Source of the DNA: Salinicola endophyticus
GTDB lineage: Bacteria; Pseudomonadota; Gammaproteobacteria; Pseudomonadales; Halomonadaceae
DNA length: 64,000 nucleotides
Reading direction: 5' to 3'
NCBI RefSeq assembly: GCF_040536835.1
Contig: NZ_CP159578.1
Span: forward strand, 3,658,001 to 3,722,000
In this document: in pieces, positions 12,415 through 34,993 of the stretch
Numbering within the stretch: position 1 is the stretch's first letter
How the letters are laid out: every line of letters starts with the position of its first letter
Made by a program: the position numbers and the translations under genes
Notes under the pieces: model-generated
What the model was told of the DNA's origin: nothing
The model's input: the letters and a program-made list of their open reading frames with translations, nothing else
The model's database searches: none

Positions 12415-14007
12415 TCAGCCGTTGCCGTCGGACGTGTGGAAGCGCCAGGTATTGCGCCCGGCGCGCTTGGCCGCGTACATCGCGCGGTCGGCGAGCAGCA
12501 GCGCCTGCTGCGGCTCCTCGGTATCCACCCCGAGCAGCGCCACCCCGATGCTGACCCCGATGGTGATCGCCACCCCCGACTCGAGCTCGATCGGGGTCTG
12601 CAGCCCCGCGACGAAGCGCGCCAGCAGCGCCTCGACCTCGTCGCGCTGCCCGCACCCTTCCAGCAGCAGCACGAACTCGTCACCGCCCAACCGCGCCACG
12701 TAGTCGCGTTGGCGCAGCAGCATCGCCAGCTCGCCGCCGACGTGGCGCAGTACACGGTCTCCGGCGTGGTGACCGTGGGTGTCGTTGATCTGCTTGAAGT
12801 GATCGAAGTCGAGCAGCACGAGGGCGTGGCAACGATCCGGGTAGAGCCGATGATGGCGCCCCATCACCGCCAGACGGCGATCGAAGCCACGCCGGTTGCC
12901 GAGCCCGGTCAGCGGGTCGGTCACCGCCAGCTGCTCGGCCGCGTCCGCGGCGCGCTTACGCGCGGTGACATCATGTGCGACCCCCTGCAAGCGCCCGGCC
13001 TCCAGCGGGTTGAGCACCAGATTGACCCAGCGCCGCGGCTCCTCGTCGCCCAGCGCCACCTCCCACTGCTGCCCACGGCCGCCGGCGACCACCGTGGCCG
13101 GGCTGGCGCCAAAGCTGCCCTCGGGGTCGACCAGGGTGGCGAAGTCGATCGGGTGACGGGTCAGGTCGCGCTTGGCGGGCAGCTTGAACAAACGCCGGAA
13201 GGCGGGGTTGGCGACGCGGATCGTGCCATCGTCGTCGACCTCGAAGATTCCCGTCTCGACATTGTCGAAGATCGCCCGGTAGCGGCGCTCCTCGACCTCG
13301 CGCTCGAGGCGCAGACAGCGCTCGGCGTCGAGGCTCTGGACCAGGTTATCGATCATGGCGTTGACGCTGTTCACCAACTGACCGATCTCGTCGTCGCGGT
13401 TACCCCGCGGCGCCTGCAGTTTCTGCCCGGTTTCCGCCTCCAGCGCTCGCAGCCGTTGCGACAACCCGGTGATCGGGCGGGTCACGTAGCGCACCACCAC
13501 CAGCACCACACAGAAGCCGATCCCCAGCAGCTGCAGCAGCAGCGCACCGCCGACAAAGCGCGAGGCCTGACCGACCAGACCATCGATATAGCGCTGGTCG
13601 GGATCGATGATCAGGCGGCACAGGGGTGTCTCGGGCTCGAACGGCGACGATATCTCGCGCGTGAACAGGGCATCGTTGGGGCTGTCGATCGGCCCGCCCC
13701 GACCGATCAGCAGTTTGCCGTCGAGGGATTCGATGCGTACTGCATGCACGATGTCGTTGCTCAGCAGGCCATCGGCCAGCTCCCGCGCCAGCTCCTCGCC
13801 GTTCAGGAAGCAGGCGATCTGTGCCGTGCGCTCGACCGTGGTCAGCAGGCCCTCGAGGCGCGCCTGCTGCTCCCGATGCACACTCTGGGCGCGAAAGTGC
13901 ACCGCCAGCAGCAGGAAGGCGACGCCCAGCAGGCCCACGATCAGCAAAATGATCGCCGTGGTGCGCAGCGCCAGGCGGGTTTGTAACAGCATCAGCAGTC
14001 GCGACAT
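12415..14007 (-). CDS. Membrane diguanylate cyclase (HAMP-PAS-GGDEF), c-di-GMP cassette 1
   Basis: A 530-residue inner-membrane sensor that should make c-di-GMP. Order: membrane helix at 15-36, periplasmic domain of about 115 residues (37-150) resembling the CHASE8-type sensor of YfiN, second helix at 151-174, HAMP at about 172-225, PAS at about 240-350, and GGDEF domain from 360. The active-site GGDEF is intact at 441-445 and an inhibitory site RQRD sits at 432-435, exactly five residues before it, so product inhibition is expected. It is the last gene of a three-gene unit: the PstS-like gene ends 3 bases before its start. The periplasmic domain could read the state of that protein (inference). 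Confidence 0.93.
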   Translation of the reverse strand: MSRLLMLLQTRLALRTTAIILLIVGLLGVAFLLLAVHFRAQSVHREQQARLEGLLTTVERTAQIACFLNGEELARELADGLLSNDIVHAVRIESLDGKLLIGRGGPIDSPNDALFTREISSPFEPETPLCRLIIDPDQRYIDGLVGQASRFVGGALLLQLLGIGFCVVLVVVRYVTRPITGLSQRLRALEAETGQKLQAPRGNRDDEIGQLVNSVNAMIDNLVQSLDAERCLRLEREVEERRYRAIFDNVETGIFEVDDDGTIRVANPAFRRLFKLPAKRDLTRHPIDFATLVDPEGSFGASPATVVAGGRGQQWEVALGDEEPRRWVNLVLNPLEAGRLQGVAHDVTARKRAADAAEQLAVTDPLTGLGNRRGFDRRLAVMGRHHRLYPDRCHALVLLDFDHFKQINDTHGHHAGDRVLRHVGGELAMLLRQRDYVARLGGDEFVLLLEGCGQRDEVEALLARFVAGLQTPIELESGVAITIGVSIGVALLGVDTEEPQQALLLADRAMYAAKRAGRNTWRFHTSDGNG

Positions 14008-14010
14008 CGC

Positions 14011-14433
14011 TCACTCGCTCAGTATCAGCACGACGTGCAGATCGTCACCCACCTCGCGGCTGTCGAGATAACCGACGGCGCTCGGATTGTGCGCCACCAG
14101 CTGGCGCATCTCGACGGCCGTCGTTACCTGCTGCGGCGGGGAGGCCTCGCCCGAGAAGACCAGGCGCGCCCAGTAGGCGTTGATCTCGGCCAGATTCTTG
14201 TTCACCAGCGCACGATAGAAACGCACCTTGAGCGGTGCCACGTCCAGCGGCAGCGCCGGATTGCCATTGGGCAGCTTGCGATAACGGCCCATGAAGATAT
14301 TGACCACCTCGCTGCGGGTGAGCTGACCGACGCCGCTGCCGGCCTCGACCACGATGGCGATATCCGCCTTCGCCGGAAGCGTCAGCGTCAGCGTCAGTAG
14401 CGCTATGAGAAGACAGGCGCGCACGCGAATCAT
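14011..14433 (-). CDS. Small PstS-like periplasmic substrate-binding protein, cassette 1
   Basis: A 140-residue exported protein: Sec signal peptide with hydrophobic core ACLLIALLTLTLTLPAKA (cleavage after AKA near residue 23), then a short PBP-like domain. It resembles the phosphate-binding PstS family (PF12849) in SEVVNIFMGRYRKLPNG near residue 42 and WARLVFSGEASPPQQVTTA near 88, but is about half the length of a true PstS. The homologue in cassette 2 (34559-34993) shares the W-x-R-x-VFSG, TA-x-x-M and P-x-x-(I/V)GY pattern. It sits between the barrel gene (10-base gap) and the cyclase gene (3-base gap). No phosphate permease genes are present, so a signalling rather than transport role is likely. 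Confidence 0.8.
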   Translation of the reverse strand: MIRVRACLLIALLTLTLTLPAKADIAIVVEAGSGVGQLTRSEVVNIFMGRYRKLPNGNPALPLDVAPLKVRFYRALVNKNLAEINAYWARLVFSGEASPPQQVTTAVEMRQLVAHNPSAVGYLDSREVGDDLHVVLILSE

Positions 14434-14443
14434 GCCCAGGTTC

Positions 14444-15604
14444 CTAGAAGATGAAGTCCAGCCCGAGACTGAAGATCGAGCTCCAACCGCCCTCCCAGTC
14501 GCTGTCGCCACGCCACAAGAAGCCAGGCCTGTGTGTATCGATACGATCGAGCTGCACCTTGAGTGCGATATCCCTGGCGACGTCGAAGCGCGTACCGAAG
14601 GTCCAGGTGCGCTGGTCGATATCGGTGACGTCGGGATGGGTGGAAGACGTGATGGCACGGGAGTGCGCGACATAGGGCGTCACCTGCCCCAACCGGTAAC
14701 CGACCGAGAGCAGCGCCGAATCGATCCGGCCGTGGTAGCGCGCGGTACGGCTACGGTTCCACATCGCCTGTACCTGCAGCGGGCCGCTGTCATACAGCGC
14801 CCCCAACGAGAACAGCCGCAGCCGCGAGAAGCCGAGCGCGCGTTCGACCTCGCGCTCGCCATCCAACCCGGGTATCTGAAGGCTGTCGATCTCGTTCACC
14901 AGCCCACCAGTGTAGTCCACGTCCGAGCGCACTTCGGTATAGCTGGTGCGCAGGCGCCAGGGGCCGTGCTCGTAGTCGAGGTGTCCGCCGTAGACGGCGT
15001 CGGCATCGAAGTCCGCGACCAGGTCATCGACCACGTGGATGCGGCTCTCGGAGCGCCCGGCGTAGAGCTTGAGCCGCACCAGGTCGCTGCCCAGCGGCTG
15101 CTTGAAGGTGATGTCGGCGCCGTCGATATGGGTCAACTGCAGCATGCCGAACTGATCCACCGGGGGTCTCGCCCAGGGGTAGGCGTAACCCACGTAGCGC
15201 GAATCGGCGAGCTGGAAAACATCCCAACCCAGACGCCCGGCGCGCAGCTGCAGCGCGGGGTCAGGGCGATAGCGCACGAACGCCCAGCTCAGCTCGGGGC
15301 GGTAATTGCCGCTGTCGTGGTAGCGGCTGATCCCCTGCACCACCAGGTCCCAACGCGGCTCGAAACGCCACTCGAGCTGCGCCCCTAGCAGGCTGTCGAC
15401 CCGCGCACTCCACCCCTCTCCGGCGCCCTTGGGCTGGCCGATGTCACGCAGGAACTCGGCATCGGAATTGTCGCTGTGAACCAGCCCCAGGGTGCCGAAA
15501 CCGCTCAGCGTGAGGCGGCCGTCGTCGCTTGCATGAAACGCCTGGGCCGCCAGACTCATGCTCATCAGCACCAGTCCCAGCCCTATCTGTCGCCATCGCT
15601 GCAT
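14444..15604 (-). CDS. Outer-membrane beta-barrel protein, cassette 1
   Basis: A 386-residue exported protein: signal peptide QIGLGLVLMSMSLAAQA with cleavage near residue 22, then a run of alternating amphipathic strands with many aromatic residues, ending in FSLGLDFIF; a terminal Phe is the outer-membrane insertion signal. The mature N-terminus LTLSGFGTLGLVHSDNSD resembles that of the cassette 2 barrel (FQVHGFMSQALILTDHND), so the two are probably homologous. No TonB box or plug domain is visible, so it looks like a porin-like or scaffold barrel of unknown ligand. It is the first gene of the operon with the PstS-like and cyclase genes. Confidence 0.82.
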   Translation of the reverse strand: MQRWRQIGLGLVLMSMSLAAQAFHASDDGRLTLSGFGTLGLVHSDNSDAEFLRDIGQPKGAGEGWSARVDSLLGAQLEWRFEPRWDLVVQGISRYHDSGNYRPELSWAFVRYRPDPALQLRAGRLGWDVFQLADSRYVGYAYPWARPPVDQFGMLQLTHIDGADITFKQPLGSDLVRLKLYAGRSESRIHVVDDLVADFDADAVYGGHLDYEHGPWRLRTSYTEVRSDVDYTGGLVNEIDSLQIPGLDGEREVERALGFSRLRLFSLGALYDSGPLQVQAMWNRSRTARYHGRIDSALLSVGYRLGQVTPYVAHSRAITSSTHPDVTDIDQRTWTFGTRFDVARDIALKVQLDRIDTHRPGFLWRGDSDWEGGWSSIFSLGLDFIF

Positions 15605-15863
15605 ACCGGGTCTCAGGGGTGGGCGGCGTGGCTGCCACGCGTCCCACCGCTCGAAGAAAAATTAGAATGTCTGCATTATTGTCGGCAGATGACAGCCTTT
15701 CTGAAGTCGGCAACCCGCCGAGGGCGCAGGCACGGGCCGGTTCTGCCCACCCAAGCGACGCCACTCGGCGGGGAACGCGACGTGTTAGACTTTGTCTCTA
15801 TAAGCCCATTTTTCACGCCAATGTGCGCCGACCGTTATTGGCCCGGATGGAGATAGCCGCTCA

Positions 15864-17426
15864 ATGTCTCTGGAAGAACTGCATCTCAACCTGCGTAACC
15901 TCGCCTGCGCGGATTATCCGCAGCTCAAGCGGCTGATGGACGCCGTCTACGACGACATCGGCGGTGCCTGGTCCCAGCACACCATCGACAAGCTGATCGA
16001 CGAGTTCCCCGATGGCCAGATCATCATCGAGGACGACGACAAGATCGTCGGCGTCGCGCTCACCGTGCGGGTCGATTACGACCGCTTCTCCAACCCGCAC
16101 AAGTACGACGAGCTGATCGGCCACCGCGAGATCATTCTCAACGAACCCGAGGGCGATGCGCTCTACGGTCTCGACGTGCTGATCGACCCCGCCTACCGTG
16201 GCTATCGCCTCGGCCGGCGCCTGTATGAAGCGCGCAAGGACCTGTGCCGCTCGATGAACCTGCGCGCGATCCTGGCGGGCGGGCGAATCCCCAACTATCA
16301 CCAGCACGCCGAGGAGATGTCGCCGGCGGAGTACATCGAGCGGGTCGCGCGCAAGGAGTTCTACGACCCCATCCTGTCGTTCCAGCTGGCCAACGACTTC
16401 CTGGTCAAACGGCTGTTGAAGAAGTATCTGCCCGAAGACGAGAAGTCGATGGGCTACGCCACCCTGCTGGAGTGGAACAACATCCTCTACGAACCGGCCA
16501 GCCTGGTGATCGACACCCGGCGCACCCAGATTCGGGTGGGCGCGGTGCAGTGGCAGATGCGCGAGTTCGACTCGGTCGAGTCGGTCCTCAAGCAGGTCGA
16601 GTTCTACGTCGACGCCATCTCCGACTATCAGAGCGACTTCGCGGTCTTTCCGGAACTGTTCAACACGCCATTGATGGGGCTGACCGACCAGACCGATCAG
16701 GTCGCGGCGATTCAGTTCCTGGCCGGCTTCACCGAGCGCTTCAAGAACGAGATCTCGCGCATGGCGGTCTCCTACAACATCAATATCGTTGCCGGCTCGA
16801 TGGTGGAGAAGGGCGAGGACGGCAAGCTCTACAACGTCGCTTACCTGTGCCACCGCGATGGCAGCGTCGACCGCCAGGCCAAGCTCCATATCACTCCTCA
16901 GGAGCGCCGTGACTGGGTGGTCGAGGGCGGCGACGAGCTGTGCGTGTTCGAGACCGATGCCGGCCGCGTGGGCATCCTGATCTGCTACGACGTGGAGTTC
17001 CCGGAGCTGCCGCGGCTGCTCGCCGAGCAGGACATGGACGTGCTGATCGTGCCGTTCTGGACCGACACCAAGAACAGCTATCTGCGCGTGCGCCACTGCG
17101 CTCAGGCCCGGGCGATCGAGAACGAGTGCTACGTGGTGGTGTGCGGTAGCGTCGGCAACGTGCCCTCGATCGAGAACCTGGACATCCAGTACGCCCAGTC
17201 GTCGGTGTTCTCGCCCTCCGACTTCGCCTTCCCTCACGATGCGGTGCTCTCCGAGACCACGCCCAACACCGAGATGGTGATGTTCTCGGATCTCGACCTG
17301 ACCAAGCTCAAGCTGGTCCGCAACGAGGGCGCGGTGACCAACCTCAAGGATCGCCGCCTGGACCTCTACGACCTGCGCCTGCGCGACTGGTCGTGGAAGT
17401 CCGGAGCGCGTCAGGAAGAGAGCTGA
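15864..17426 (+). CDS. Fused GNAT acetyltransferase / carbon-nitrogen hydrolase
   Basis: A 520-residue two-domain protein. Residues 1-215 form a GNAT domain, with the acetyl-CoA pyrophosphate loop in DPAYRGYRLGRRLYEARK (108-125). Residues 222-510 form a nitrilase-superfamily domain with the full Glu-Lys-Cys triad: Glu264 in FPELF, Lys340 in AKLHITPQE and Cys374 in ICYDVEFPE. Such fusions are known in proteobacteria, but the substrate is not established; an amide or omega-amidase-like reaction coupled to N-acetylation is possible. It is a single gene with an upstream AT-rich region (15780-15830); the MtfA gene follows 44 bases later. Confidence 0.92.
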   Translation: MSLEELHLNLRNLACADYPQLKRLMDAVYDDIGGAWSQHTIDKLIDEFPDGQIIIEDDDKIVGVALTVRVDYDRFSNPHKYDELIGHREIILNEPEGDALYGLDVLIDPAYRGYRLGRRLYEARKDLCRSMNLRAILAGGRIPNYHQHAEEMSPAEYIERVARKEFYDPILSFQLANDFLVKRLLKKYLPEDEKSMGYATLLEWNNILYEPASLVIDTRRTQIRVGAVQWQMREFDSVESVLKQVEFYVDAISDYQSDFAVFPELFNTPLMGLTDQTDQVAAIQFLAGFTERFKNEISRMAVSYNINIVAGSMVEKGEDGKLYNVAYLCHRDGSVDRQAKLHITPQERRDWVVEGGDELCVFETDAGRVGILICYDVEFPELPRLLAEQDMDVLIVPFWTDTKNSYLRVRHCAQARAIENECYVVVCGSVGNVPSIENLDIQYAQSSVFSPSDFAFPHDAVLSETTPNTEMVMFSDLDLTKLKLVRNEGAVTNLKDRRLDLYDLRLRDWSWKSGARQEES

Positions 17427-17470
17427 GGCATGCGGCGAGGCGAGCGTAACGCCACCACGGAGAGGCGCGC

Positions 17471-18268
17471 GTGAAGCGGCCGGGCTGGTGGCCCATTCGG
17501 CGTGGTGCTCCCGCGTTCGATGCGGCGTGCTGGCAGGCGGTACGCCAGGGCCTGCCGCTGCTCGCCGACCTCGACGACAGCGACGCCGCACGCCTGGGTG
17601 AGCGCGCCTGGCAGCAGCTGCACCGCTGGCAGTGGGCGGCGTCCGAGGAGGTCGAGTACGATCTCGCCGCCCAACTGGCGATCGCCGCCCAAGCCTGTCT
17701 GCTGACGCTGGCCTGGAGCGACGACGACGCCAGCGCCGCCTTCGCCAACGTGCACGATATCGTGCTGGTCGCCGACGCCTTCCACCGCCGGGTGGAGGAG
17801 CTGGACGACTTCGGCGTGATGCACGAGTACGAGGACGAGCGCGCCGGCGAGACCTCCTGGCGCGGCCCGGTGGTGCTGGCCTCCCCCGAGGTCGGCGCCA
17901 GCGGCGACTACTCCGGCTACAACGTGATCATCCACGAGTTCGCCCACAAGCTCGACCTGGGCAACTCCCACGATGTCGACGGCTTTCCGCCGCTGGCCGC
18001 CGCGAGCGAAGTCACCGCCCAGGAGTGGCATCGCATCTTCACCGCGGTGTGGGACGACCTGCAGGCGCACCTCGCCCGCGGCGAAGAGACACCGATCGAC
18101 GACTACGCCGCCACCCACCCCGGCGAGTGCTTCGCGGTCTGCTGCGAGCTCTTCTTCACCGCCCCGGATCAGCTGATCGAGGTCTATCCCGCGCTTTATG
18201 ACCTGTTGAAGCGCTACTTCGGGCAGGACGCCATGACGCGTTTCACACGTCCCCCGCCCTCCGCCTGA
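17471..18268 (+). CDS. mtfA: MtfA-family zinc metallopeptidase
   Basis: A 265-residue cytosolic peptidase of the MtfA (YeeI) family. The zinc motif HEFAH is at residues 155-159 (IIHEFAHKLD) and the third ligand Glu lies in GECFAVCCELFF near 220. Other signatures are VVLASPEVGASGDYSGYNV and YEDERAGETSWRGP. In E. coli MtfA binds the glucose-PTS repressor Mlc; no PTS genes are here, so its partner may differ. The start is a GTG at 17471, chosen because the family N-terminus begins there. Confidence 0.92.
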   Translation: MKRPGWWPIRRGAPAFDAACWQAVRQGLPLLADLDDSDAARLGERAWQQLHRWQWAASEEVEYDLAAQLAIAAQACLLTLAWSDDDASAAFANVHDIVLVADAFHRRVEELDDFGVMHEYEDERAGETSWRGPVVLASPEVGASGDYSGYNVIIHEFAHKLDLGNSHDVDGFPPLAAASEVTAQEWHRIFTAVWDDLQAHLARGEETPIDDYAATHPGECFAVCCELFFTAPDQLIEVYPALYDLLKRYFGQDAMTRFTRPPPSA

Positions 18269-18325
18269 GGCCGATTTCAAAATTCGAACGCAATAGCGTA
18301 AAAAACCGCCGGATGGAGGGTCAAG

Positions 18326-19240
18326 ATGTCGGCGCCATTCGCCAAGCCCAAAGACGCGGTGACGACACCGCTGAACGAGGGGCCTTGCGTGCCATTCACC
18401 CCGCTGTCCCAGGGGTATTCGATAGAGGCCACACCGAAGGCGATACTTGGAGACAGGGTCGAATGGGGTGCCGTCCCCGAGGAGACCCGCATTTTCATTC
18501 CCCAATTCCCGAAGAATACGCACGCAGAGATGCTGGCTTGCGCCAAGCGATTGCAGGGCATGGGATTCAAACCGGTACCCCATGTGACCGCCCGTAGGCT
18601 GGCCGACAAGCGTGAATTCGAGCGTTTGCTATCGAAACTGGTGGCAGAGACCGCTGTCGATGAGATCCTGCTGCTGGCCGGCGGCGACGACACGCCTCAC
18701 GGCCAGCTCGGCAACACGCTCGAGCTGCTGGAGTCGGGTATCATCGAGCGTGTCGGCATACGGCGTATCGGTGTGGCGGGGCACCCGGAGGGTCACCCCG
18801 AGGCGACGCAGGAAGCGCTCGACCGTGCCTTGGCGATCAAGAATGCCTTTTCGGTCGAGACCGGTATACCGCTCTACATCGTCACCCAGTTTTTCTTCGA
18901 TGCCGACCCTTTCATTGCCTGGGAGCGTCGTATTCGGGAGCAAGGCAATCGGTTGCCGATTCATGCCGGCCTGCACGGTCTGGCCAGTGGACCCAGCCTG
19001 CTCAAGCACGCCATGGCTTGCGGGGTCGGTTCCTCGGTCAAGGTGCTACACAGGAACATGACCGGATTGAGAGGATTGCTAGGCCTGAGCTGGCGAGGTC
19101 AGGATCCGGGCCGGATCGTCAAGGCACTGGCTGCCTCCAAGGAGCGCGATCCGGCCAGCAACCTGGCGGGCTTCCACTTTTATGCCCTGGGTGCGTTCGA
19201 TCTCACGGTGAAGTGGGCCAATCGTTTCGCGCAAACTTGA
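18326..19240 (+). CDS. Methylenetetrahydrofolate reductase-like protein
   Basis: A 304-residue protein of the MTHFR/MetF fold. It shows ETRIFIPQFPKNTHAEMLACAKRL and VPHVTARRL (beta/alpha-barrel residues where MetF has PHxTC-type residues), ILLLAGGDDTP in the FAD region, VGIRRIGVAGHPEGHPEA (the MetF VAGYPEGH motif) and YIVTQFFFDADPF (MetF TQxFFD). It is weakly similar overall to housekeeping MetF, which suggests a paralogue for another folate-linked route such as demethylation of methylated amines. No methionine synthase or demethylase genes are adjacent. Local composition is somewhat more AT-rich than its neighbours. A GGAGGG ribosome site precedes the ATG. Confidence 0.82.
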   Translation: MSAPFAKPKDAVTTPLNEGPCVPFTPLSQGYSIEATPKAILGDRVEWGAVPEETRIFIPQFPKNTHAEMLACAKRLQGMGFKPVPHVTARRLADKREFERLLSKLVAETAVDEILLLAGGDDTPHGQLGNTLELLESGIIERVGIRRIGVAGHPEGHPEATQEALDRALAIKNAFSVETGIPLYIVTQFFFDADPFIAWERRIREQGNRLPIHAGLHGLASGPSLLKHAMACGVGSSVKVLHRNMTGLRGLLGLSWRGQDPGRIVKALAASKERDPASNLAGFHFYALGAFDLTVKWANRFAQT

Positions 19241-19390
19241 GGATGACCGGGGTCATCGCCCAGTCGGCGTCGTCTCTCTATCAACGATCCGCCGGTAGCC
19301 AACGACCCACCGGTAGCCGGCCAGATACCGCGTGTCGGATAGCCCGCCCCCGCCCGACGGACAGCGTGTCGAATGGAATTGGGATCGCCT

Positions 19391-19738: not shown

Positions 19739-19742
19739 CGTC

Positions 19743-19889
19743 CCAGGCCCTTCACGAAAACTGGCTGCGCTCGGCAATACGGCGTTAAAAATCCACTCAA
19801 AATGCTCATTTACACCCCGTAAACTCCGCTTTCTCATAGATTTTTGCCTTGTCTTGACTTCGCTAGCCGACTTTTCGTAAAGCCCCTAG
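19743..19889. repeat. CTAG-ended palindromic repeat, copy B
   Basis: A 147-base element exactly filling the gap between two minus-strand genes. It shares with copy C (23826-24002) the blocks tcggcaatacggcgttaaaa (19771-19790) and aaatgctcatttacaccccg (19799-19818), and the gccttgtcttg-type right part. The ends form imperfect inverted repeats (CAGGCCCTTCACGAAAA against CTTTTCGTAAAGCCCCTAG). The right CTAG contains the stop codon of the YciI-like gene and the left end abuts the start of the 115-residue protein gene. Confidence 0.8.
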
Positions 19890-27641: not shown

Positions 27642-27740
27642 CTGTATTCAACAATGGATTGCATGATAGCCCGATTATCGCCATGGCGAGAGGGCCTACA
27701 CTGCAGGCGTCTCTGCAGACAGGCAGCGCGAGGAGAGAAC

Positions 27741-28622
27741 ATGTTCCCAGGATTCGAACACGCCACCATCGAAGTCGCCGCGAATGTCTCCATTACCGGC
27801 GTGATCGGCGGCTCGGGTCCGCCGCTCCTGCTGCTGCATGGCCATCCGCAGACCCACGTCATCTGGCATCGCCTGGCACCGGCGCTGGCCGAGCATTACA
27901 CCGTCGTCGCCACCGACCTGCGTGGCTACGGCGATGCCAGCAAGCCACCGGGCGAGCCGCAACACGCCAACTACAGCAAGCGCCGCATGGCCGCCGATCA
28001 GGTCGCGGTCATGGATAAGCTCGGCTTCGACAGCTTCTTTCTGTGCGGGCATGACCGCGGTGGCCGGGTCGCCCATCGTCTAGCGCTCGACCATCCCGAG
28101 CGGGTACGCAAGCTGATGGTGCTGGATATCGCACCGACCCTGGCGATGTACGAGGCGACCGATCTCACTTTCGCCACCGCCTACTGGCACTGGTTCTTCC
28201 TGATCCAGCCGGCGCCGCTGCCGGAGTCGTGGATCGAAGCCGCACCGGCTGAGTACGTCACCCGCATCATGGGCAGCCGCCACGCGGGGCTGGCGCCGTT
28301 CGACCCCGCCGCCATTGCCGAGTACCAACGCTGTCTCGCCCTGCCCGGCGCCGCCCACGGGCTGTGCGAGGACTATCGTGCCGCCCGCGGCATCGATCTC
28401 GAACACGACCGCGCCGACCGCACTGCCGGGCGCCACCTCACCCGCCCGCTACGGGTGCTGTGGGGTGCACACGGCGTGATCGAGCGCTGCTTCGACGCCT
28501 TGGCCGAATGGCGCGCGGTCTCCGTCGCCGAGGTCGACGGCGAGGCCCTGCCCTGCGGCCACTATCTACCCGAGGAGGCGCCCGCTGGCGTGCTCCGTCA
28601 TCTCATCGACTTCATGAGGTAA
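27741..28622 (+). CDS. Alpha/beta hydrolase, haloacetate (fluoroacetate) dehalogenase-like
   Basis: A 293-residue alpha/beta hydrolase with the layout of fluoroacetate dehalogenase: nucleophile Asp105 followed by Arg106 and Arg109 in GHDRGGRVAHR, the halide-site His150-Trp151 in AYWHWFFLIQPAPLPE, and a C-terminal His in LPCGHYLPEEAP. Oxyanion-hole segment LLLLHGHPQTHVIWH. These match the residues used for haloacetate hydrolysis (Asp110, Arg111, Arg114, His155, Trp156 and His280 in the Rhodopseudomonas enzyme). The natural substrate may still be another 2-substituted short acid. dmlA follows after 5 bases, so the two are cotranscribed. The ATG has a GAGGAGAG site. Confidence 0.88.
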   Translation: MFPGFEHATIEVAANVSITGVIGGSGPPLLLLHGHPQTHVIWHRLAPALAEHYTVVATDLRGYGDASKPPGEPQHANYSKRRMAADQVAVMDKLGFDSFFLCGHDRGGRVAHRLALDHPERVRKLMVLDIAPTLAMYEATDLTFATAYWHWFFLIQPAPLPESWIEAAPAEYVTRIMGSRHAGLAPFDPAAIAEYQRCLALPGAAHGLCEDYRAARGIDLEHDRADRTAGRHLTRPLRVLWGAHGVIERCFDALAEWRAVSVAEVDGEALPCGHYLPEEAPAGVLRHLIDFMR

Positions 28623-28627
28623 TCCCC

Positions 28628-29704
28628 ATGGCCAGCCAGACCCATCGCATCGCCGTCATCCCCGGCGACGGCATCGGTACAGAAGTGGTGCCTGAAGGCC
28701 TGCGCGTGCTCGAGGCCGCCGCCCGCCGCTTCGATATCGCGCTCGAGTTCGAGACGTTCGCATTCGGTAGCTGCGACTACTACCTCGAACACGGCCAGAT
28801 GCTGCCGGACGACTGGTTCGACACCCTGTCGCGGTTCGACGCCATCTTCTACGGCGCAGTGGGCTGGCCGGAGAAGGTACCCGACCATATCTCGCTGTGG
28901 GGCTCGCTGCTGCAGTTCCGGCGCCATTTCGACCAGTACATCAACCTGCGCCCCTGCCGGCTGATGCCGGGCATCAAGAGCCCGCTGGCGGACCGCCACC
29001 CCGGCGACATCGACTTCTACGTGGTGCGCGAGAACACCGAGGGCGAGTACTCGAGCATCGGCGGCAAGATCTTCGAGGGCACCGAGCGCGAGACGGTGAT
29101 GCAGGAGACGGTGATGACGCGTACCGGGGTGGACCGGGTGCTCAAGTACGCTTTCGAGCTGGCCCAGAGCCGCCCACGCAAGAAGCTGACCTCGGCGACC
29201 AAGTCCAACGGCATCTCGATCACCATGCCCTACTGGGACGAACGGGTGAAGGCGATGGCGTCGCACTACCCCGAAATCGGCGTGGATCAGTTTCATATCG
29301 ATATCCTGACCGCCAATTTCGTCCTGCACCCGGACTGGTTCGACGTCGTCGTCGCCAGCAACCTGTTCGGCGACATCCTCTCCGACCTCGGCCCGGCCTG
29401 TACCGGCACCATCGGCATTGCGCCCTCGGCCAACATCAATCCCGAGGGCAAGTTCCCCAGCCTGTTCGAGCCGGTCCACGGCAGCGCCCCGGATATCGCC
29501 GGCCAGGGCATTGCCAACCCGATCGGCCAGATCTGGTGCGGCGCGATGATGCTCGAGCATCTGGGGCACGATGCCGCCGGCGCCGCCATCGTCAGCGCCA
29601 TCGAACGCGTACTGGCCAGCGACGACCGCACGCTGCTCACCCCGGACATCAAGGGCCAGGGCACCACCGAAAGCCTGGGCCGGGCAATCGCCGAGGCACT
29701 CTGA
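28628..29704 (+). CDS. dmlA: D-malate / tartrate dehydrogenase (decarboxylating)
   Basis: A 358-residue NAD-dependent enzyme of the isocitrate/isopropylmalate dehydrogenase family. Signatures: HRIAVIPGDGIGTEVVPEG at the start, LRPCRLMPGIKSPL, VVRENTEGEYSSIGG (ENTEGEY is characteristic), the NAD-binding and substrate segment DVVVASNLFGDILSDLGPA, and FEPVHGSAPDIAGQGIANP. The tartrate/D-malate branch is favoured over LeuB by the REALLY-type ENTEGEYS segment and the gene context with a DmlR-like regulator. It probably oxidises D-malate to pyruvate; cotranscribed with the preceding dehalogenase-like hydrolase, which could generate 2-hydroxy acids. Confidence 0.92.
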   Translation: MASQTHRIAVIPGDGIGTEVVPEGLRVLEAAARRFDIALEFETFAFGSCDYYLEHGQMLPDDWFDTLSRFDAIFYGAVGWPEKVPDHISLWGSLLQFRRHFDQYINLRPCRLMPGIKSPLADRHPGDIDFYVVRENTEGEYSSIGGKIFEGTERETVMQETVMTRTGVDRVLKYAFELAQSRPRKKLTSATKSNGISITMPYWDERVKAMASHYPEIGVDQFHIDILTANFVLHPDWFDVVVASNLFGDILSDLGPACTGTIGIAPSANINPEGKFPSLFEPVHGSAPDIAGQGIANPIGQIWCGAMMLEHLGHDAAGAAIVSAIERVLASDDRTLLTPDIKGQGTTESLGRAIAEAL

Positions 29705-29770
29705 TCGCGACGCGACCGGCAAGCCCTGGAGTAGCCGTGCTACGCCGGGGCGCGCGGCGGTAGGGGCCAG

Positions 29771-30505
29771 TCAACTAGCGGTGCGAGTCAGACGATACTG
29801 CTGCTCCAGCTCGTGGTAGAGCGCCGCGTAGAGCGGCTGAAAGGTCTGGCTGAGTTCGCGCTCGGCACGTCGCTGGTCGATATAGAACGCCGCCCGCACA
29901 CCGAGCAGCTCGACGGTCGGGCTCACCTGGGCGAAACGCAGCCCGGCCCTGGCCAGCAGGCGCTGAAAGCGTGGCTCGATCATCGCTAGAACGTGAGGAC
30001 GGTCAAGCAGACCACTCAGGGCGGTAGCGCATAGGTTCAGACCAATACCGAGGGTCATGAACGTCTGACGACCGTGTTGTTGCAGCAGCTGCTTCTCCTG
30101 CGCCGATGCACTCCCACTCCCACCACCAGTGCGAAAATAGTAGGGAATGGCGACACGCGATATTTCGCAGAGGTGCGTCCTGGAGAGTGGAACGTCTCCC
30201 ATATCGATAGTGATGCCTAAATGCGAACAGTGCTCCTCGACGGGTAGAATGACCGCCTCGCCATCATCCCCAGTCGCCTTGACCACCCGCAAACATCCGA
30301 CGATTATCCCTGTTTCGCGATGCGCCACGAGACAGTGCAGGGCATTGTCATCGAATGCGTCCCTCTCGACGCGATCGTGCTGATCGATGCTGAAAAACCC
30401 GAGCTCTTCGCAAAACACCCGATGACGGAGCTGAAAGGCACACCGCTTGTCGTCTTCGGACAGTGCCAGTCTGAAGTGAAAAATCGTCAGCAATGCGTCC
30501 GTCAC
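29771..30505 (-). CDS. FeeM/PEP-CTERM-associated acyltransferase-like protein (N-acyl amino acid synthase type)
   Basis: A GNAT-fold acyltransferase of the group that includes N-acyl amino acid synthases and exosortase-associated acyltransferases, which use acyl-ACP. Seen: CAFQLRHRVFCEELGFF (core LRHRVFCEELGF), HCLVAHRETGIIVGCLRVVK, and LCEISRVAIPYYFRT, the conserved ExSRxAI motif, followed by ALLxxLGxxL-like helices. There is no ATG in a sensible place. I use a GTG at 30505 (244 residues, normal length); TTG codons at 30574 or near 30540 are alternatives, and the frame is open to 30679, overlapping the end of the GGDEF-EAL gene. It is the last gene of the cassette 2 operon. No exosortase is in the window. 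Confidence 0.72.
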   Translation of the reverse strand: MTDALLTIFHFRLALSEDDKRCAFQLRHRVFCEELGFFSIDQHDRVERDAFDDNALHCLVAHRETGIIVGCLRVVKATGDDGEAVILPVEEHCSHLGITIDMGDVPLSRTHLCEISRVAIPYYFRTGGGSGSASAQEKQLLQQHGRQTFMTLGIGLNLCATALSGLLDRPHVLAMIEPRFQRLLARAGLRFAQVSPTVELLGVRAAFYIDQRRAERELSQTFQPLYAALYHELEQQYRLTRTAS

Positions 30506-30533
30506 ACCAGCGATCGAGCGAGGCTGCGAGAGC

Positions 30534-33338
30534 TCATCCAAATCCTGCGTCGCGAGCAAGCATTGGTTTACCAAAATAAAACCCCTGAGCGTAGTCGATA
30601 TTATAATTAGCCAAGAAGGGTAGAATAGAAGATTTATCAACAAACTCGGCGACCGTTTTCTTGCCCAACCCCCGAGCAATATCGGCGATGGCTTTGACGA
30701 TCAGCCGACTCTCCTCGCTGTCCAACAGCGTGGTAATGAATGACCCATCTATCTTGATATAGTCCGACGGTAGCTGCCCCAGGTAGTAGAAACTGCTGAA
30801 GCCAACGCCAAAATCATCGAGTGCCACCTGGCAGCCCAAGCGTCTGATTTCTTCTAGCACACCTCTTGCCGAGGTAAAATCGGTCACAGCCGCCGTTTCG
30901 GTGACTTCTACCACCAAGCGGTGGGGCTTCACCTGCCACTTATCAAACTCTTCACGCAGGAAGGTTGTCAATGTCCGGTCATTGAGAGACTGCCCGGAGA
31001 GGTTGACAGCCAGATTGATGACTTCGTCTGATCGGCGTGACAGCAGTGCGATACCGTGGGAAAGCACCCATCTATCGATGGCAACGATCTGACCCGTGCG
31101 CTCGGCAACGGGGATGAAAGCGCCCGGCGATAAATAACCCCCATCTTCCTGGCGCATACGCAGCAGCGCTTCGTAATGCTGAATAGTGAGATCTTTCAAT
31201 CGAAAGATAGGCTGAACCAGCAATTCGAACTGGTCATGCAGCAGTGCATTGCGAATCCTTTCGATCCAAAAGACACGATTTTTCAAATCTTCACGCCCCT
31301 GCTGATCCGGCGTCAGCAAATGCCAGCGTTGGGTAGCGTCCTCTTTGGCGCGATACATCGCGTAGTCGGCATTGGCCATAAGCTCATCGGGACTGTCGCC
31401 GTTATCGGGATAGAGCGCAATACCGATACTGGCACTGGCGCGGTGGGTGCGACCGTCCACGTGCAGACTGCGATGCTCCAACTCCTCAGCAATCTGTTTG
31501 GCGCGTTCGATCGCTAGATCCGCAGAGGCGTGCTCCATGAGCACGGCAAACTCATCGCCTCCCAGGCGAGCCACGATGCTGCCTAGGTTGAGCTCTGCCA
31601 GCGTCGCTGCCACGGTCCGCAGCAGCCGGTCTCCGGAATGGTGGCCGCTTAGCTCGTTGACGTCCTTGAATCGATCGAGATCGAGATAGAGCACGGCACC
31701 GAAGTGACCCGTGACCACGGCGCGGCGCAATGCATCCTCGAAGAAACGTCGATTGTAGAGCTCTGTGAGCGGGTCGCGGTTGGCCAGCCAGGACAATTGA
31801 TTTTCAGCCGTTTTTCTCTCGGTGATATCGACGCCGACAGAGATGACCTCGGAGCCCCCTTCCTCCGTTCTCAACGGGGTGTGATACCAGACGATCGTTC
31901 GCTTGGTGCCATCGACAGCAACGAACGTACTTTCCTGCTGGCTGCCATGCGCGAATATCTCCTCCTCATCGAAGCGCTCGACCGCAAAGGTGGCCGGGAA
32001 ACTGCGTTGCTTGAGCGCCTGCTCATCCAATCCCGTCATCACCTGGCAGAATCGATTGACCAGCGTCATGCGGCCATCCCGGCGGTGCGTGACGACCAGC
32101 ACCTCTGCGGTATTCATGAGTCCACTGATGAAGTCACGCTCTCGGGCCAGTTCCCGTACTCGGGTCTCGAGTTCGCTCCCGCGTTTGCTGACCTCCTTTT
32201 CGAGACCTTCGAGTTGTATTTCGAGATCGATCGCCGTCTTCTCCAGTGTATCGATCTCGTCGACGAACAATGACCTGCGCGCCTGTCGCCCCTGACGCAT
32301 GACGTAGTACTGCCGATCGGCGAGCAGCGGGAGCTTGCGGCTGATCGCCCGCAACTGATCCATGCGATAGCGAAGGATCAAGTAAAGGATACATTCCGCC
32401 GCCAGCCAGCCCCCTAGAGAGATCAGCAGAATGGTGTTGGTGGTGCTAGCAATGCTCTCCATCTGCGTGGTCACGTCCGATACCAGCAGAAAACTTCCCC
32501 GCGTATCACTTCCACTATCAGTACCCGCGATGGGTATCGTCGACAGCTCATAGGTCCGGCCGTCCTGCGAGTAACTCAGAGATCTGCCCTCGATCGTCTC
32601 CCAAGCGTACTGTTGCGTGAGTGCCTTGATGAAGGGGAGCAGCTCGGCCTCATGGGTCAAGGCAGTGAGGAGGGCATCCCAGCGCGGTAGAAAACGCTTA
32701 CCACCTGCGCCGCCCTCCTGACGCACCAGCAGGGCGACCTCACTCCCAGAGCTCATCTGCACATAGCGCGTCACGTCGGCCAGCGAACGCGAGAGAACGA
32801 CCACCCCGGCATCTGTCCCCTCGGCCAGGACAGGCACCGCCTCGTACTGCTGGCACGATTGCCGGCATCTCAACCGATCGGCCGGCTCTTCACGGGCCAG
32901 AACGCCGCGCAGCCAGACACGATCGATGGGGGTAGGTGCTGCGGAACTCTCTCTACCGGTACTCGTGATCACGTTCAGGCTGCGGTCGTAGACGATGACC
33001 TCATCCACACCTGCATCCAACTGCAGTGTTGGCCACAGCGCACGGAGCGCAAGGCTGGCACGCTCTGTGTCTGCATGCAGCAGCGCGTTACCCAGGGGTT
33101 CGGAAGCAGCCACCAGACTCGCCATCTGCCGCATGGCATCCGCGGAGCGCTGAATATTGAAATGGACTTCCTGACGTTGACGATCGTAGAAATCGCGGCG
33201 GGCATCAGCGAACTGGTCCATCAACGCCCGATTGCTCACCCACACGATCAGAATCGTCAAACCTAAAAGCAGAAAGCTGGTGAGCAGCATGGCTCGCCAT
33301 TTCAGGTCCAGCTTGAAGGTACGCTCATGAGCACGCAT
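30534..33338 (-). CDS. Membrane PAS-GGDEF-EAL protein, c-di-GMP cassette 2
   Basis: A 934-residue inner-membrane protein: helix at about 16-36, a large periplasmic domain of about 260 residues (dCACHE-like length, with Cys-rich RCRQSCQQY), second helix near 300-320, coiled-coil, PAS at about 405-520, GGDEF about 530-690, and EAL about 700-930. GGDEF is intact but no RxxD inhibitory site precedes it. The EAL domain keeps EALL, EVTETAAV, DDFGVGFSS and KIDGSF, so it looks catalytically competent; the net activity is not predictable. The barrel gene ends 31 bases upstream. Its region is visibly more AT-rich than most of the window. Confidence 0.93.
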   Translation of the reverse strand: MRAHERTFKLDLKWRAMLLTSFLLLGLTILIVWVSNRALMDQFADARRDFYDRQRQEVHFNIQRSADAMRQMASLVAASEPLGNALLHADTERASLALRALWPTLQLDAGVDEVIVYDRSLNVITSTGRESSAAPTPIDRVWLRGVLAREEPADRLRCRQSCQQYEAVPVLAEGTDAGVVVLSRSLADVTRYVQMSSGSEVALLVRQEGGAGGKRFLPRWDALLTALTHEAELLPFIKALTQQYAWETIEGRSLSYSQDGRTYELSTIPIAGTDSGSDTRGSFLLVSDVTTQMESIASTTNTILLISLGGWLAAECILYLILRYRMDQLRAISRKLPLLADRQYYVMRQGRQARRSLFVDEIDTLEKTAIDLEIQLEGLEKEVSKRGSELETRVRELARERDFISGLMNTAEVLVVTHRRDGRMTLVNRFCQVMTGLDEQALKQRSFPATFAVERFDEEEIFAHGSQQESTFVAVDGTKRTIVWYHTPLRTEEGGSEVISVGVDITERKTAENQLSWLANRDPLTELYNRRFFEDALRRAVVTGHFGAVLYLDLDRFKDVNELSGHHSGDRLLRTVAATLAELNLGSIVARLGGDEFAVLMEHASADLAIERAKQIAEELEHRSLHVDGRTHRASASIGIALYPDNGDSPDELMANADYAMYRAKEDATQRWHLLTPDQQGREDLKNRVFWIERIRNALLHDQFELLVQPIFRLKDLTIQHYEALLRMRQEDGGYLSPGAFIPVAERTGQIVAIDRWVLSHGIALLSRRSDEVINLAVNLSGQSLNDRTLTTFLREEFDKWQVKPHRLVVEVTETAAVTDFTSARGVLEEIRRLGCQVALDDFGVGFSSFYYLGQLPSDYIKIDGSFITTLLDSEESRLIVKAIADIARGLGKKTVAEFVDKSSILPFLANYNIDYAQGFYFGKPMLARDAGFG

Positions 33339-33369
33339 TCAAACGCCTCTCAGAGTTTCGTCGATGACA

Positions 33370-34566
33370 TCAGAAAAAGTAAGAGACCTGAAACAGAAGC
33401 AAATTCCAGTACTTCTTCTGGCTCATGAGCTCCGCCCTATCCTGATAAGGCAGCCAGCCCGTACCCTCGATATGGTGAAGTTCCGTCGATACCATAAAAC
33501 GCCCATAGGGCTGCCACTGGATGCCGGTCGTCCAGTCCTTGGCATAACGCGTGAAGGCCGGCTGGCCTGATGTCCGAGCAAACTCCTTCCCTGAACGATC
33601 ATCGATATCGGTCACCAGGGAGTCGTACCGCAAGAGCCACTGCCAGTCACTACCCAGCCGTCGACTCAACTGCACGTACCAGCTCTCTCCCGTCACATCA
33701 TAGTTATAAGGAGACACGAATCCTTTTGTCTGAATGTTACGGATGGCGTATTCGGTCGTGAAAGACCAGTTCTCCAGATTGTACTGAAAAGAAAGAAGCC
33801 AAGGCTGAAAGGAAAAATCACCCAAACCGGGCCGCACACCGCGAGAGTCGAATTCCGCATTGACGTCAGCATAAGTCAATGCCAGCACGAATTCGCCGCC
33901 ACCATGTTCGTAACGCACCTGACCGATGTAGGACGTTCTACCCGAGAATTCGCCATAACTGTCCGCACCCAAGGCACTGACTTCGGATTGATCGTCGAGA
34001 CGAGGGCTACCCATACCGAACTGAAACCGGACGGAACCGTTATTCAGAAATGCCTCTGAGTAAAGCATGACGCCGTCCGCGGACAGCGCGGGCTGGCGAG
34101 TGCGATCGAAGTAAATGGACTGTGGCAGCAATATGCTGGGCCGTGTGGCGGCGACATCTCGCGTTTGATTGTAGAGTCCGAGAGGGTTCTTGAAACGACC
34201 GAGCTGAATGCCCGCATTGGCGTCGCTGTCGGTGAAGAACTGATAATCCAGCACCCCATAGTCGAGCTCAGGCTCGTTCAGTTGCTGCATGTCGCCTGCC
34301 TGACGCGCCAGCACCTGCGCTGCCACAAGCACATTACTGCGCGGCCGAAATGAGGCATTGAGCCCCAGCTCGGTGTACTCAAGACTGCCGGTATCGCGAC
34401 TGCTAGGACCGAAGAAGTCGTTGTGATCGGTCAAGATCAGCGCCTGGCTCATGAAGCCGTGAACCTGAAAAGTATCCGGCATCTCCATTGCCTGAGCCTG
34501 GACCGCCAGCGTCAAACCGAGCACGCTCAGCCAGCTCGGCGCTGCGCTTCGTAATACGTTATTCAA
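33370..34566 (-). CDS. Outer-membrane beta-barrel protein, cassette 2
   Basis: A 398-residue exported barrel: signal peptide SWLSVLGLTLAVQAQAM with cleavage near residue 27, then alternating strands and the terminal FQVSYFF, whose final Phe is the insertion signal. The mature start FQVHGFMSQALILTDHNDFF is like the cassette 1 barrel. Internal segments NAGIQLGRFKNPLGLYNQTRD and NWSFTTEYAIRN resemble porins of the phosphate-selective or short-chain type. The ATG at 34566 overlaps the end of the PstS-like gene by 8 bases, showing tight coupling. No TonB plug seen. Confidence 0.82.
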   Translation of the reverse strand: MNNVLRSAAPSWLSVLGLTLAVQAQAMEMPDTFQVHGFMSQALILTDHNDFFGPSSRDTGSLEYTELGLNASFRPRSNVLVAAQVLARQAGDMQQLNEPELDYGVLDYQFFTDSDANAGIQLGRFKNPLGLYNQTRDVAATRPSILLPQSIYFDRTRQPALSADGVMLYSEAFLNNGSVRFQFGMGSPRLDDQSEVSALGADSYGEFSGRTSYIGQVRYEHGGGEFVLALTYADVNAEFDSRGVRPGLGDFSFQPWLLSFQYNLENWSFTTEYAIRNIQTKGFVSPYNYDVTGESWYVQLSRRLGSDWQWLLRYDSLVTDIDDRSGKEFARTSGQPAFTRYAKDWTTGIQWQPYGRFMVSTELHHIEGTGWLPYQDRAELMSQKKYWNLLLFQVSYFF

Positions 34567-34993
34567 TGTCGAGCACCCGAACTTGATTCGTCAGTTCTGA
34601 ACGGTAGACGTAGCCGATACCGCCGGGCGTGGAGGCCACAGCCTTGAGCATCGCCGACGCCGTGGCGACTTCGTTCGGTGCCTGTCCGGTACCGGAAAAG
34701 ACGGCCCTGTCCCAGGCCAGGCGGAGTTGATGGGGATAGACGCCGAGAATCTTCTTGGCAAAGGCCTCGTGCAGCGGGTCGCCGTCCGGTAGCACGAAAA
34801 CATGCACTGCTTGGCCATCGGCCAGAGTTCTTTGACGCATGGCAAAGATCGCTCTGACGGTTTCCAGCGATAGAGAGCTCTGGATGACTGACGGATTGGC
34901 GATCAGGACCACCATAGGGTCGTCGCCACGGCTCTTGACGGTGAAGAGAAGCGCCGCTACGAGGCAGAGACAAGCGATCAGCGGTGGTCGCAT
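34559..34993 (-). CDS. Small PstS-like periplasmic substrate-binding protein, cassette 2
   Basis: A 144-residue exported protein with signal peptide PPLIACLCLVAALLFTVKS, then a short PBP-like domain: MVVLIANPSVIQSSLSLETV, IFAMRQRTLADGQAVHVFVL, and WDRAVFSGTGQAPNEVATAS near residue 95, ending GGIGYVYRSELTNQVRVLDIE. It is homologous by pattern to 14011-14433. It is the first gene here, ahead of the barrel gene, whereas in cassette 1 the barrel comes first. The start at 34993 was chosen because the signal peptide begins there; the longer frame upstream adds a non-exported extension. Confidence 0.78.
   Translation of the reverse strand: MRPPLIACLCLVAALLFTVKSRGDDPMVVLIANPSVIQSSLSLETVRAIFAMRQRTLADGQAVHVFVLPDGDPLHEAFAKKILGVYPHQLRLAWDRAVFSGTGQAPNEVATASAMLKAVASTPGGIGYVYRSELTNQVRVLDIE

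What the first reader, a model, noticed from the sequence alone, without database searches (positions are those of the whole stretch)
12415..34993. Two copies of a three-gene envelope-to-c-di-GMP module
Cassette 1 (15604 to 12415, minus strand) is barrel, PstS-like protein, HAMP-PAS-GGDEF cyclase. Cassette 2 (34993 to 30534, minus strand) is PstS-like protein, barrel, PAS-GGDEF-EAL protein. In both, the barrel is about 390 residues with a terminal Phe, and the periplasmic protein about 140 residues with a W-x-R-x-VFSG core. The PstS-like proteins are half-size and no phosphate permease is present, so transport is unlikely. Gaps are 10 and 3 bases in cassette 1 and an 8-base overlap plus 31-base gap in cassette 2. 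The arrangement parallels YfiB-YfiR-YfiN (outer membrane, periplasm, cyclase) but the components are different families. I infer a signalling relay from outer membrane to c-di-GMP.
Basis: partly seen in the sequence, partly recalled or inferred. Interest (0 to 1): 0.85.

Follow-up and report, generated by a model that had tools for sequence, protein, structure and literature searches.

The report
Porin plus half-PstS sensory module
Many Gram-negative bacteria pair an outer-membrane porin-like barrel with half of a phosphate-binding protein and often place the pair beside a membrane signalling protein, here enzymes of the c-di-GMP messenger, which looks like a little-described way of passing signals from the outer membrane to the cell interior.

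Summary
The two cassettes are two old lineages of one module, not recent copies (periplasmic proteins 33% identical, different gene order, unrelated sensor domains). The periplasmic protein is lobe 2 of PstS without its phosphate motif; the cassette 2 barrel has a porin fold. In 100 fetched regions around relatives, 94 have a barrel within 300 bp and 66 a transducer within 1.9 kb: c-di-GMP enzymes 37, chemoreceptors 17, histidine kinases 16. So the core is barrel plus half-PstS, and the output is interchangeable. Three periplasmic sensor-domain families go with it; searched in genomes, hits outside the training rows lie near a half-PstS in 17 of 32 cases (about 0.1% by chance) and 8 clearly do not. 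Natural fusions put the half-PstS on a membrane anchor with a long linker. The logic resembles YfiBNR with a non-homologous adaptor. Contact, ligand and direction of signalling are inferred. A third of pairs show no transducer nearby, and one lies beside phoBR and pst genes. Cassette 2 also carries an acyltransferase related to autoinducer synthases.

The parts
14444..15604 (-). Cassette 1 barrel, 386 aa, Porin_4-like
   Evidence: ORF; Pfam Porin_4 E 5.1e-9; C-terminal Phe
14011..14433 (-). Cassette 1 half-PstS, 140 aa, W-x-R-x-VFSG core
   Evidence: 502 relatives at E<=1e-3
12415..14007 (-). Cassette 1 diguanylate cyclase: periplasmic sensor - HAMP - PAS - GGDEF, 530 aa
   Evidence: GGDEF motif intact by eye
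13498..13905 (-). Periplasmic sensor region 'sens1' of the cassette 1 cyclase (possibly a distant CHASE8 relative)
   Evidence: iterated HMM; profile A3; hhalign to CHASE8 86% over 61 columns
34559..34993 (-). Cassette 2 half-PstS (lobe 2 only), 144 aa
33370..34566 (-). Cassette 2 barrel, 398 aa, porin fold, read as 16 strands
   Evidence: AF2 pLDDT 88; Foldseek Omp32/VhChiP/DcaP, lower OprO/OprP; no Pfam family at E<=1
30534..33338 (-). Cassette 2 dCache_3 - PAS - GGDEF - EAL protein, 934 aa
32460..33230 (-). dCache_3-like periplasmic sensor region with conserved Cys-x3-Cys (profile A4)
   Evidence: C...C in 27 of 27 rows
29771..30532 (-). Cassette 2 fourth gene: TIGR03694 acyltransferase with an autoinducer-synthase-like stretch; start codon not settled
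   Evidence: NCBIfam 152.5 bits over cut-off 111.95; Pfam Autoind_synth E 1.1e-8

Best explanation
The outer-membrane barrel and the half-PstS form a two-protein receptor/adaptor unit that is plugged into whichever inner-membrane transducer lies beside it. Shown: the pair is conserved together; its neighbours are enriched in GGDEF/EAL proteins, MCPs and histidine kinases; single sensor-domain families near the pair carry different outputs; the half-PstS lacks lobe 1 and the phosphate motif. Inferred: the barrel changes state (solute in the pore, or a state of the outer membrane); the half-PstS contacts the periplasmic face of the barrel and reports this by binding or leaving the periplasmic sensor domain, much as YfiR moves between YfiB and YfiN. 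In this genome cassette 1 would tune c-di-GMP synthesis (GGDEF motif intact) and cassette 2 synthesis and breakdown (GGDEF and EAL motifs intact by eye).
For: Barrel within 300 bp in 94 of 100 regions, transducer within 1.9 kb in 66 of 100; transducers in 67 of 395 near versus 20 of 892 far gene slots, Fisher 3e-20. Sensor domains searched in 370 genomes, hits outside the rows used to build each profile: dCache 5 of 12, sens1 2 of 5, LBD-C 10 of 15 lie near a half-PstS (searches set, flanks), against about 0.1% by chance. One sensor family with several outputs: sens1 on GGDEF, GGDEF-EAL and HK; LBD-C on MCP, GGDEF and HK, all 27 ORFs found in the fetched loci within 1.5 kb of a half-PstS. Fusions: J-domain-TM-linker-half-PstS next to a barrel (L070-L072), TM-linker-half-PstS (L074), half-PstS plus TonB_C (P0294). 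R..[GS]SGT in 0 of 66 rows, W-x-[RKQ] core in 66 of 66. Named plasmid records: Massilia and Ideonella barrel-halfPstS-MCP, Caballeronia hypothetical-halfPstS-EAL, P. aeruginosa MCP-porin-halfPstS.
Against: No physical contact was tested. 34 of 100 pairs have no detected transducer within 1.9 kb, and named Pseudoalteromonas and Alteromonas plasmids carry the pair alone. The raw reverse counts (27 of 34, 10 of 13, 30 of 35) are inflated because most hits are the training rows themselves; outside them 8 of 32 clearly lack the half-PstS (L158, L159, L161-L164, L171, L175), 3 have a barrel but no half-PstS seen (L160 and L166 cut by contig ends, L172 not), 4 are at contig ends. Some Pfam-scanned neighbours are unrelated proteins (FeoB, an ABC exporter, DUF349), and one HK neighbour is PilS-like (L125). 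L074 lies beside phoB, phoR, pstS, a pstC-like gene and pstB, so a phosphate link is not excluded.
Confidence: 0.52

Rival explanations
1. Ordinary solute sensing: the barrel is a substrate-selective pore and the half-PstS (perhaps as a dimer that rebuilds a clamshell) binds that solute and presents it to the sensor domain, as NspS does for MbaA or PstS for CtpL.
Against: Lobe 1 is absent and R..[GS]SGT is absent from 66 of 66 rows (3 rows have a looser [SG][SG][GS]T), so PstS-type phosphate binding is not expected; dimerisation was not tested.
Confidence: 0.26
2. The half-PstS is an assembly or gating partner of the barrel; transducers are merely co-regulated neighbours.
For: 34 of 100 pairs have no detected transducer; L107 has tandem pairs without one.
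Against: Transducers are about nine-fold enriched next to the pair (odds ratio 8.9), and sensor families lead back to it in 17 of 32 out-of-sample hits.
Confidence: 0.15
3. Chance or hitch-hiking gene neighbours.
For: Operon neighbours are often unrelated in general; several neighbours here are.
Against: Barrel 106/395 near versus 7/892 far; the half-PstS was found in 90 of 273 genera sampled; fusions.
Confidence: 0.02

Closest known systems
YfiBNR (TpbB/DgcN) system
   Same: Outer-membrane protein, soluble periplasmic protein and a periplasmic-sensor HAMP-GGDEF cyclase encoded together; YfiN homologues with GGDEF-EAL, HPT and kinase outputs are reported (PMC3375315, abstract and passages). 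The cassette 1 sensor is possibly a distant CHASE8 relative.
   Different: The YfiR family (PF13689) is not found in this genome and the periplasmic protein has a PstS lobe fold; YfiB is a PAL-domain lipoprotein, here a porin-type barrel; MCP and J-domain partners occur here.
NspS-MbaA
   Same: Periplasmic binding-protein relative working with a membrane c-di-GMP protein (abstract starts in listing).
   Different: NspS is a full-length PotD-type protein and MbaA a GGDEF-EAL protein (recalled); signal is a polyamine; no porin partner known to me.
PstS-CtpL phosphate chemotaxis
   Same: A PstS protein binds a chemoreceptor's periplasmic domain 1:1 (PMC4926252, passages).
   Different: Full-length, phosphate-binding PstS of the transporter; here one lobe, no phosphate motif, encoded with a barrel.
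PstS / PBP_like_2 (PF12849)
   Different: Half the length; cassette 2 copy below the Pfam cut-off (17.7 versus 27 bits), cassette 1 copy no hit; ligand motif lost.
PEP-CTERM/exosortase acyltransferase TIGR03694 (fourth gene)
   Same: Over the curated cut-off.
   Different: No exosortase (TIGR02602) match in this genome; encoded beside the sensory module.

Membership tests
YfiBNR | YfiR-family (PF13689) periplasmic subunit | tested here: not met
   No PF13689 match in the own genome; control rings in E. coli; the subunit's model matches PstS lobe 2
YfiBNR | YfiB: outer-membrane PAL-domain lipoprotein | tested here: not met
   Outer-membrane partners are porin-type barrels (Porin_4; porin fold)
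YfiBNR | YfiN: CHASE8-HAMP-GGDEF cyclase | tested here: inconclusive
   HAMP and GGDEF met in cassette 1; no CHASE8 match in own genome at E<=1e-3; 3 of 14 sens1 members hit CHASE8, best E 0.0035; hhalign 86% over 61 columns
PstSCAB phosphate transport | Two-lobe phosphate-binding protein with R..GSGT motif | tested here: not met
   Lobe 2 only; R..[GS]SGT in 0 of 66 rows
PstSCAB phosphate transport | PstC/PstA/PstB encoded alongside | tested here: not met
   Not in either cassette; pst-like operon elsewhere. Among relatives L074 is an exception
PBP + GGDEF-EAL receptor (NspS-MbaA type) | Binding protein physically controls the GGDEF-EAL protein | not testable with these tools
16-strand porin superfamily | 16-strand barrel with C-terminal Phe | tested here: met
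   Cassette 2 model: 17 strand elements, two short neighbours read as one; Foldseek to Omp32 etc.; 133 of 141 paired barrels end in Phe versus 3.6% of 1800 control ORFs. Cassette 1 barrel only by Pfam Porin_4, not modelled
TIGR03694 acyltransferase | Score over curated cut-off | tested here: met
   152.5 versus 111.95 bits
TIGR03694 acyltransferase | Genome carries an exosortase | tested here: not met
   TIGR02602 no match in own genome

The most novel reading that the evidence does not exclude
A general, so far unnamed class of trans-envelope receptor: a porin-fold barrel gathers the signal and a single PBP lobe is a mobile adaptor that plugs into at least three periplasmic sensor-domain families and at least three outputs (c-di-GMP enzymes, chemoreceptors, histidine kinases). 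In the cassette 2 lineage the LuxI-related acyltransferase next door makes an acylated signal that the same barrel-adaptor-GGDEF/EAL unit perceives: a self-contained cell-cell signalling system feeding c-di-GMP.
Probability: 0.37. Interest if true: 0.88.

Novelty: new variant of a known kind. Interest (0 to 1): 0.72.

Why it matters
The input to most GGDEF/EAL proteins, chemoreceptors and kinases is unknown. This proposes one shared input unit for many of them: proteins now annotated as 'porin', 'hypothetical protein' or 'phosphate ABC transporter substrate-binding protein' would be sensory subunits. It makes a testable claim about how outer-membrane events reach cytoplasmic second messengers and would be a second, non-homologous solution to the YfiBNR problem.

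Tried and rejected
Phosphate transport or PstS-type phosphate sensing by the half-PstS: rejected as the default because lobe 1 and the R..GSGT motif are missing; the L074 locus keeps a phosphate link open for that case.

Recent duplication of one cassette: rejected; low identity and different order, no profile match between the two sensor domains.

One common sensor domain for all transducers: not supported by profile comparison (sens1 against LBD-C 0.4%, sens1 against dCache 0.3%); a remote CHASE8-like relation of both sens1 (86%) and dCache (74%) is possible.

Reverse searches as first counted (27 of 34, 10 of 13, 30 of 35) were found circular on checking: 22, 8 and 20 of these hits are rows of the profiles themselves, which came from loci chosen for the half-PstS. 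A first genome-level test (30 of 32) suffers from the same fault; outside the training genomes it is 8 of 10 against 106 of 370, p 0.001.

Literature: seven searches aimed at such a module gave no paper describing a PstS-like half protein with a porin and a transducer; two of them listed one paper each, not opened, unrelated by title and abstract start. Three searches were for precedents. The library holds only open-licence papers, so this is weak evidence of absence.

Foldseek/VIA-align lists for the half-PstS showed PstS, DING, LysR-type and ModA-type domains; no YfiR-type entry was in the rows shown, which excludes nothing.

A screen for pst genes by phmmer with own-genome sequences missed the PstS of L074 that NCBIfam later found, so it is incomplete; it also showed a PstB-like ORF 5.8 kb from the pair in L084. 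A Pfam scan of eight more neighbour genes failed on bad coordinates and was not repeated, so the neighbours of the 34 pairs without a transducer are only partly identified.
Full report
WHAT IS THERE. The window lies in a 4.32 Mb single-contig genome; the nearest named relatives found are Salinicola species. All six genes lie where the finding puts them, with the stated gaps of 10, 3 and 31 bases and an 8-base overlap. Cassette 1 is barrel, half-PstS, cyclase (HAMP-PAS-GGDEF); cassette 2 is half-PstS, barrel, dCache_3-PAS-GGDEF-EAL. By eye the GGDEF motifs and, in cassette 2, the EAL catalytic motifs (recalled) are intact. A fourth gene follows cassette 2: an acyltransferase over the TIGR03694 cut-off (152.5 versus 111.95 bits) that also hits Pfam Autoind_synth at 1.1e-8. 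The genome has no exosortase match.

TWO LINEAGES, NOT TWO COPIES. The half-PstS proteins are 33% identical (E 1e-13) and the profile finds only these two in the genome; the barrels are marginally alike (22%, E 0.002); gene order and sensor domains differ. Cassette 2 is kept with its acyltransferase in Salinicola, Kushneria, Phytohalomonas and Halomonas cupida loci, without it in Pseudomaricurvus; a Nitrospira-labelled MAG contig (L027) has two half-PstS-barrel pairs, two acyltransferases and one dCache-GGDEF-EAL gene in a row. In the family sample 84 of 151 genomes have the half-PstS.

THE BARREL. The cassette 2 model (pLDDT 88) shows 17 strand elements; I read two short neighbours (205-209, 212-221) as one strand, hence 16. 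The best Foldseek matches are Omp32, VhChiP, DcaP, OmpT and, lower, OprO/OprP. Of 141 complete barrels next to a half-PstS in the loci, near relatives included, 133 end in Phe, against 3.6% of 1800 unlabelled ORFs.

SPREAD. A 32-row profile found the half-PstS in 106 of 370 genomes of the class at E<=1e-3; 16 of these have best E weaker than 1e-12 and may be distant or full-length PstS. In the phylum sample 58 of 299 match, ten of them only at E weaker than 1e-7.

NEIGHBOURHOODS. I fetched 100 regions (L030-L129), chosen by hand from the capped list of about 160 rows, with preference for long ORFs, so fusions are over-represented. All 100 contain the half-PstS; 94 have a barrel within 300 bp (in L032 and L034 it lies one gene further, in L098 a cut barrel lies two genes on; L075, L120, L125 lack it); 66 have a transducer within 1.9 kb: GGDEF/EAL 37, MCP 17, HK 16, some with two kinds. 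Per gene slot, distance 1-2 against distance 4-10: barrel 106/395 versus 7/892, any transducer 67/395 versus 20/892 (Fisher 3e-20), GGDEF/EAL 34/395 versus 11/892, MCP 19/395 versus 2/892, HK 14/395 versus 7/892 (95 of the 100 regions, five being mis-called there). Detection used home-made HMMs. Pfam scans of 16 non-fused neighbours gave MCP in 5 (L082, L087, L102, L110, L120), HK in 4 (L066, L113, L114, and the PilS-like L125), a J-domain in 1 (L106), unrelated families in 3 (DUF349 in L035, an ABC exporter in L105, FeoB in L069) and nothing in 3 (L040, L063, L093); L069 and L105 have an MCP on the other side. Named records: Massilia and Ideonella barrel-halfPstS-MCP-GGDEF, Caballeronia hypothetical-halfPstS-EAL-cyclase, two Pseudomonas aeruginosa megaplasmids MCP-porin-halfPstS. 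Against: Pseudoalteromonas and Alteromonas plasmids carry the pair without a transducer beside it, and 34 of 100 regions have none detected; of these L070-L073 are fusions and L038, L040, L054, L081 are cut by contig ends.

SENSOR DOMAINS. Three periplasmic families go with the pair. (1) sens1 of cassette 1, no Pfam hit for the window copy; 13 further ORFs in the fetched loci, each beside a half-PstS, on GGDEF, GGDEF-EAL and HK proteins (L141 by coordinates). (2) The dCache_3 region of cassette 2, with Cys-x3-Cys in 27 of 27 rows. (3) LBD-C, grown from an MCP: 27 ORFs, all within 1.5 kb of a half-PstS although the regions reach up to 10 kb, on MCP, GGDEF (L077, L099, L143) and HK (L114) proteins. 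All these loci had been fetched for their half-PstS, so I also searched the same 370 genomes from the sensor side. Raw counts near a half-PstS are 27 of 34 (dCache, E<1e-15), 10 of 13 (sens1, E<1e-20) and 30 of 35 (LBD-C, E<1e-30), but 22, 8 and 20 of the hits are rows of the profiles themselves. Outside those rows: dCache 5 of 12 near a half-PstS, 2 with a barrel cut by the contig end (L160, L166), 1 at a contig end (L165), 4 with neither (L161-L164, though the genomes of L161 and L163 have an orphan pair, L091 and L118); sens1 2 of 5 near, 1 at a contig end (L156), 2 not (L158, L159); LBD-C 10 of 15 near, 1 with a barrel only (L172), 2 at contig ends (L173, L174), 2 with neither (L171, L175). 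In all 17 of 32 near, 8 clearly not, where about 0.1% would be expected by chance. At genome level, dCache genomes outside the training set have a half-PstS in 8 of 10 against 106 of 370 (p 0.001). sens1 shows no relation to LBD-C or dCache in profile comparison but matches CHASE8, the YfiN sensor family (recalled), at 86% over 61 columns.

OUTPUT SWAPPING. On a quick tree of 136 half-PstS domains the output class (c-di-GMP, MCP, HK, fusion; nearest transducer within two genes) changes at least 18 times among 87 rows with an output, against a minimum of 35 in 200 label shuffles: outputs are inherited but repeatedly exchanged.

FUSIONS. L070-L072 encode a protein with a J-domain (Pfam tested in L070 only), a transmembrane segment near residues 205-227 (own hydropathy script), a linker of roughly 220-230 residues, then the half-PstS; the barrel is the next gene. 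L073 is similar without a clear transmembrane segment. L074 has an N-terminal transmembrane segment, about 290 residues of linker and the half-PstS. G589 has three more long forms, with no barrel called beside them. One metagenomic protein (P0294) joins a half-PstS to TonB_C. An inner-membrane anchor with a long linker and a terminal half-PstS is TonB-like geometry and suggests that the half-PstS reaches the outer membrane.

HOW IT MOST LIKELY WORKS. Barrel plus half-PstS is the input unit. I infer that the half-PstS contacts the barrel on one side and the sensor domain on the other, and that a change in the barrel shifts this balance and so switches the transducer. YfiBNR is the nearest worked-out case: YfiR represses YfiN through its periplasmic PAS domain and is sequestered by YfiB, and the core is found with other outputs (PMC3375315, passages). 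A PstS binding a chemoreceptor domain is also known (PMC4926252, passages). Shown here: association, fold, loss of the phosphate motif, sensor families enriched at the pair, fusions. Not shown: contact, ligand, sign of the effect.

MEMBERSHIP AND NOVELTY. It works like YfiBNR but fails two defining features (YfiR family, YfiB type). It is not a Pst component. Seven aimed searches of the open-licence library found no description. I rate it a new variant of a known kind: the relay idea is known, the parts and the breadth of outputs are not, as far as I could see.

THE ACYLTRANSFERASE. Of 32 ORFs matching the cassette 2 acyltransferase in the fetched loci, 31 lie within 700 bp of a half-PstS or dCache gene; the other (L030) is 1.0 kb from the dCache ORF, whose gene is split there. 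About two thirds come from loci fetched with the cassette 2 protein. Its hits to solved acyl-homoserine-lactone synthases are partial and weak (best E 0.0033). A signal-maker beside its receiver is an open, testable reading, not a result.

AFTER CHECKING. The circularity of the reverse searches made me lower the best explanation from 0.55 to 0.52, the novel case from 0.40 to 0.37 and interest from 0.74 to 0.72.

Noticed in passing
window 29771-30532: Fourth gene of cassette 2 is a TIGR03694 acyltransferase with an autoinducer-synthase-like stretch, in a genome without a detected exosortase.
   Followed up: partly
L074:1566-12392: Barrel and TM-linker-half-PstS directly upstream of phoB, phoR, full-length pstS, a pstC-like gene and pstB: the one locus seen that ties the pair to the Pho regulon.
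   Followed up: partly
L027:3937-12175: Nitrospira-labelled MAG contig with two tandem acyltransferase-halfPstS-barrel sets before one dCache-GGDEF-EAL gene.
   Followed up: no
L070-L073, L106: J-domain proteins fused to the half-PstS, or (L106) encoded just upstream of the barrel: a possible further output of unknown kind (Pfam J-domain hit tested and found in L070 and L106; none in L073).
   Followed up: partly
P0294: Single metagenomic protein joining a half-PstS to a TonB C-terminal domain.
   Followed up: no
L107 (G008): G008 has nine profile matches to the half-PstS; in L107 several lie in tandem with barrels and no transducer is called near.
   Followed up: no
L131:5908-12312: Alteromonas plasmid with the half-PstS-barrel pair next to a type IV CRISPR (csf) operon.
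   Followed up: no
dCache regions, alignment A4: Cys-x3-Cys conserved in 27 of 27 dCache sensor domains of the cassette 2 type; disulphide or metal site possible.
   Followed up: no
L156 end: The contig end upstream of a sens1 gene translates into what looks like sequencing-adapter peptide (recalled pattern), so that locus cannot be judged.
   Followed up: no
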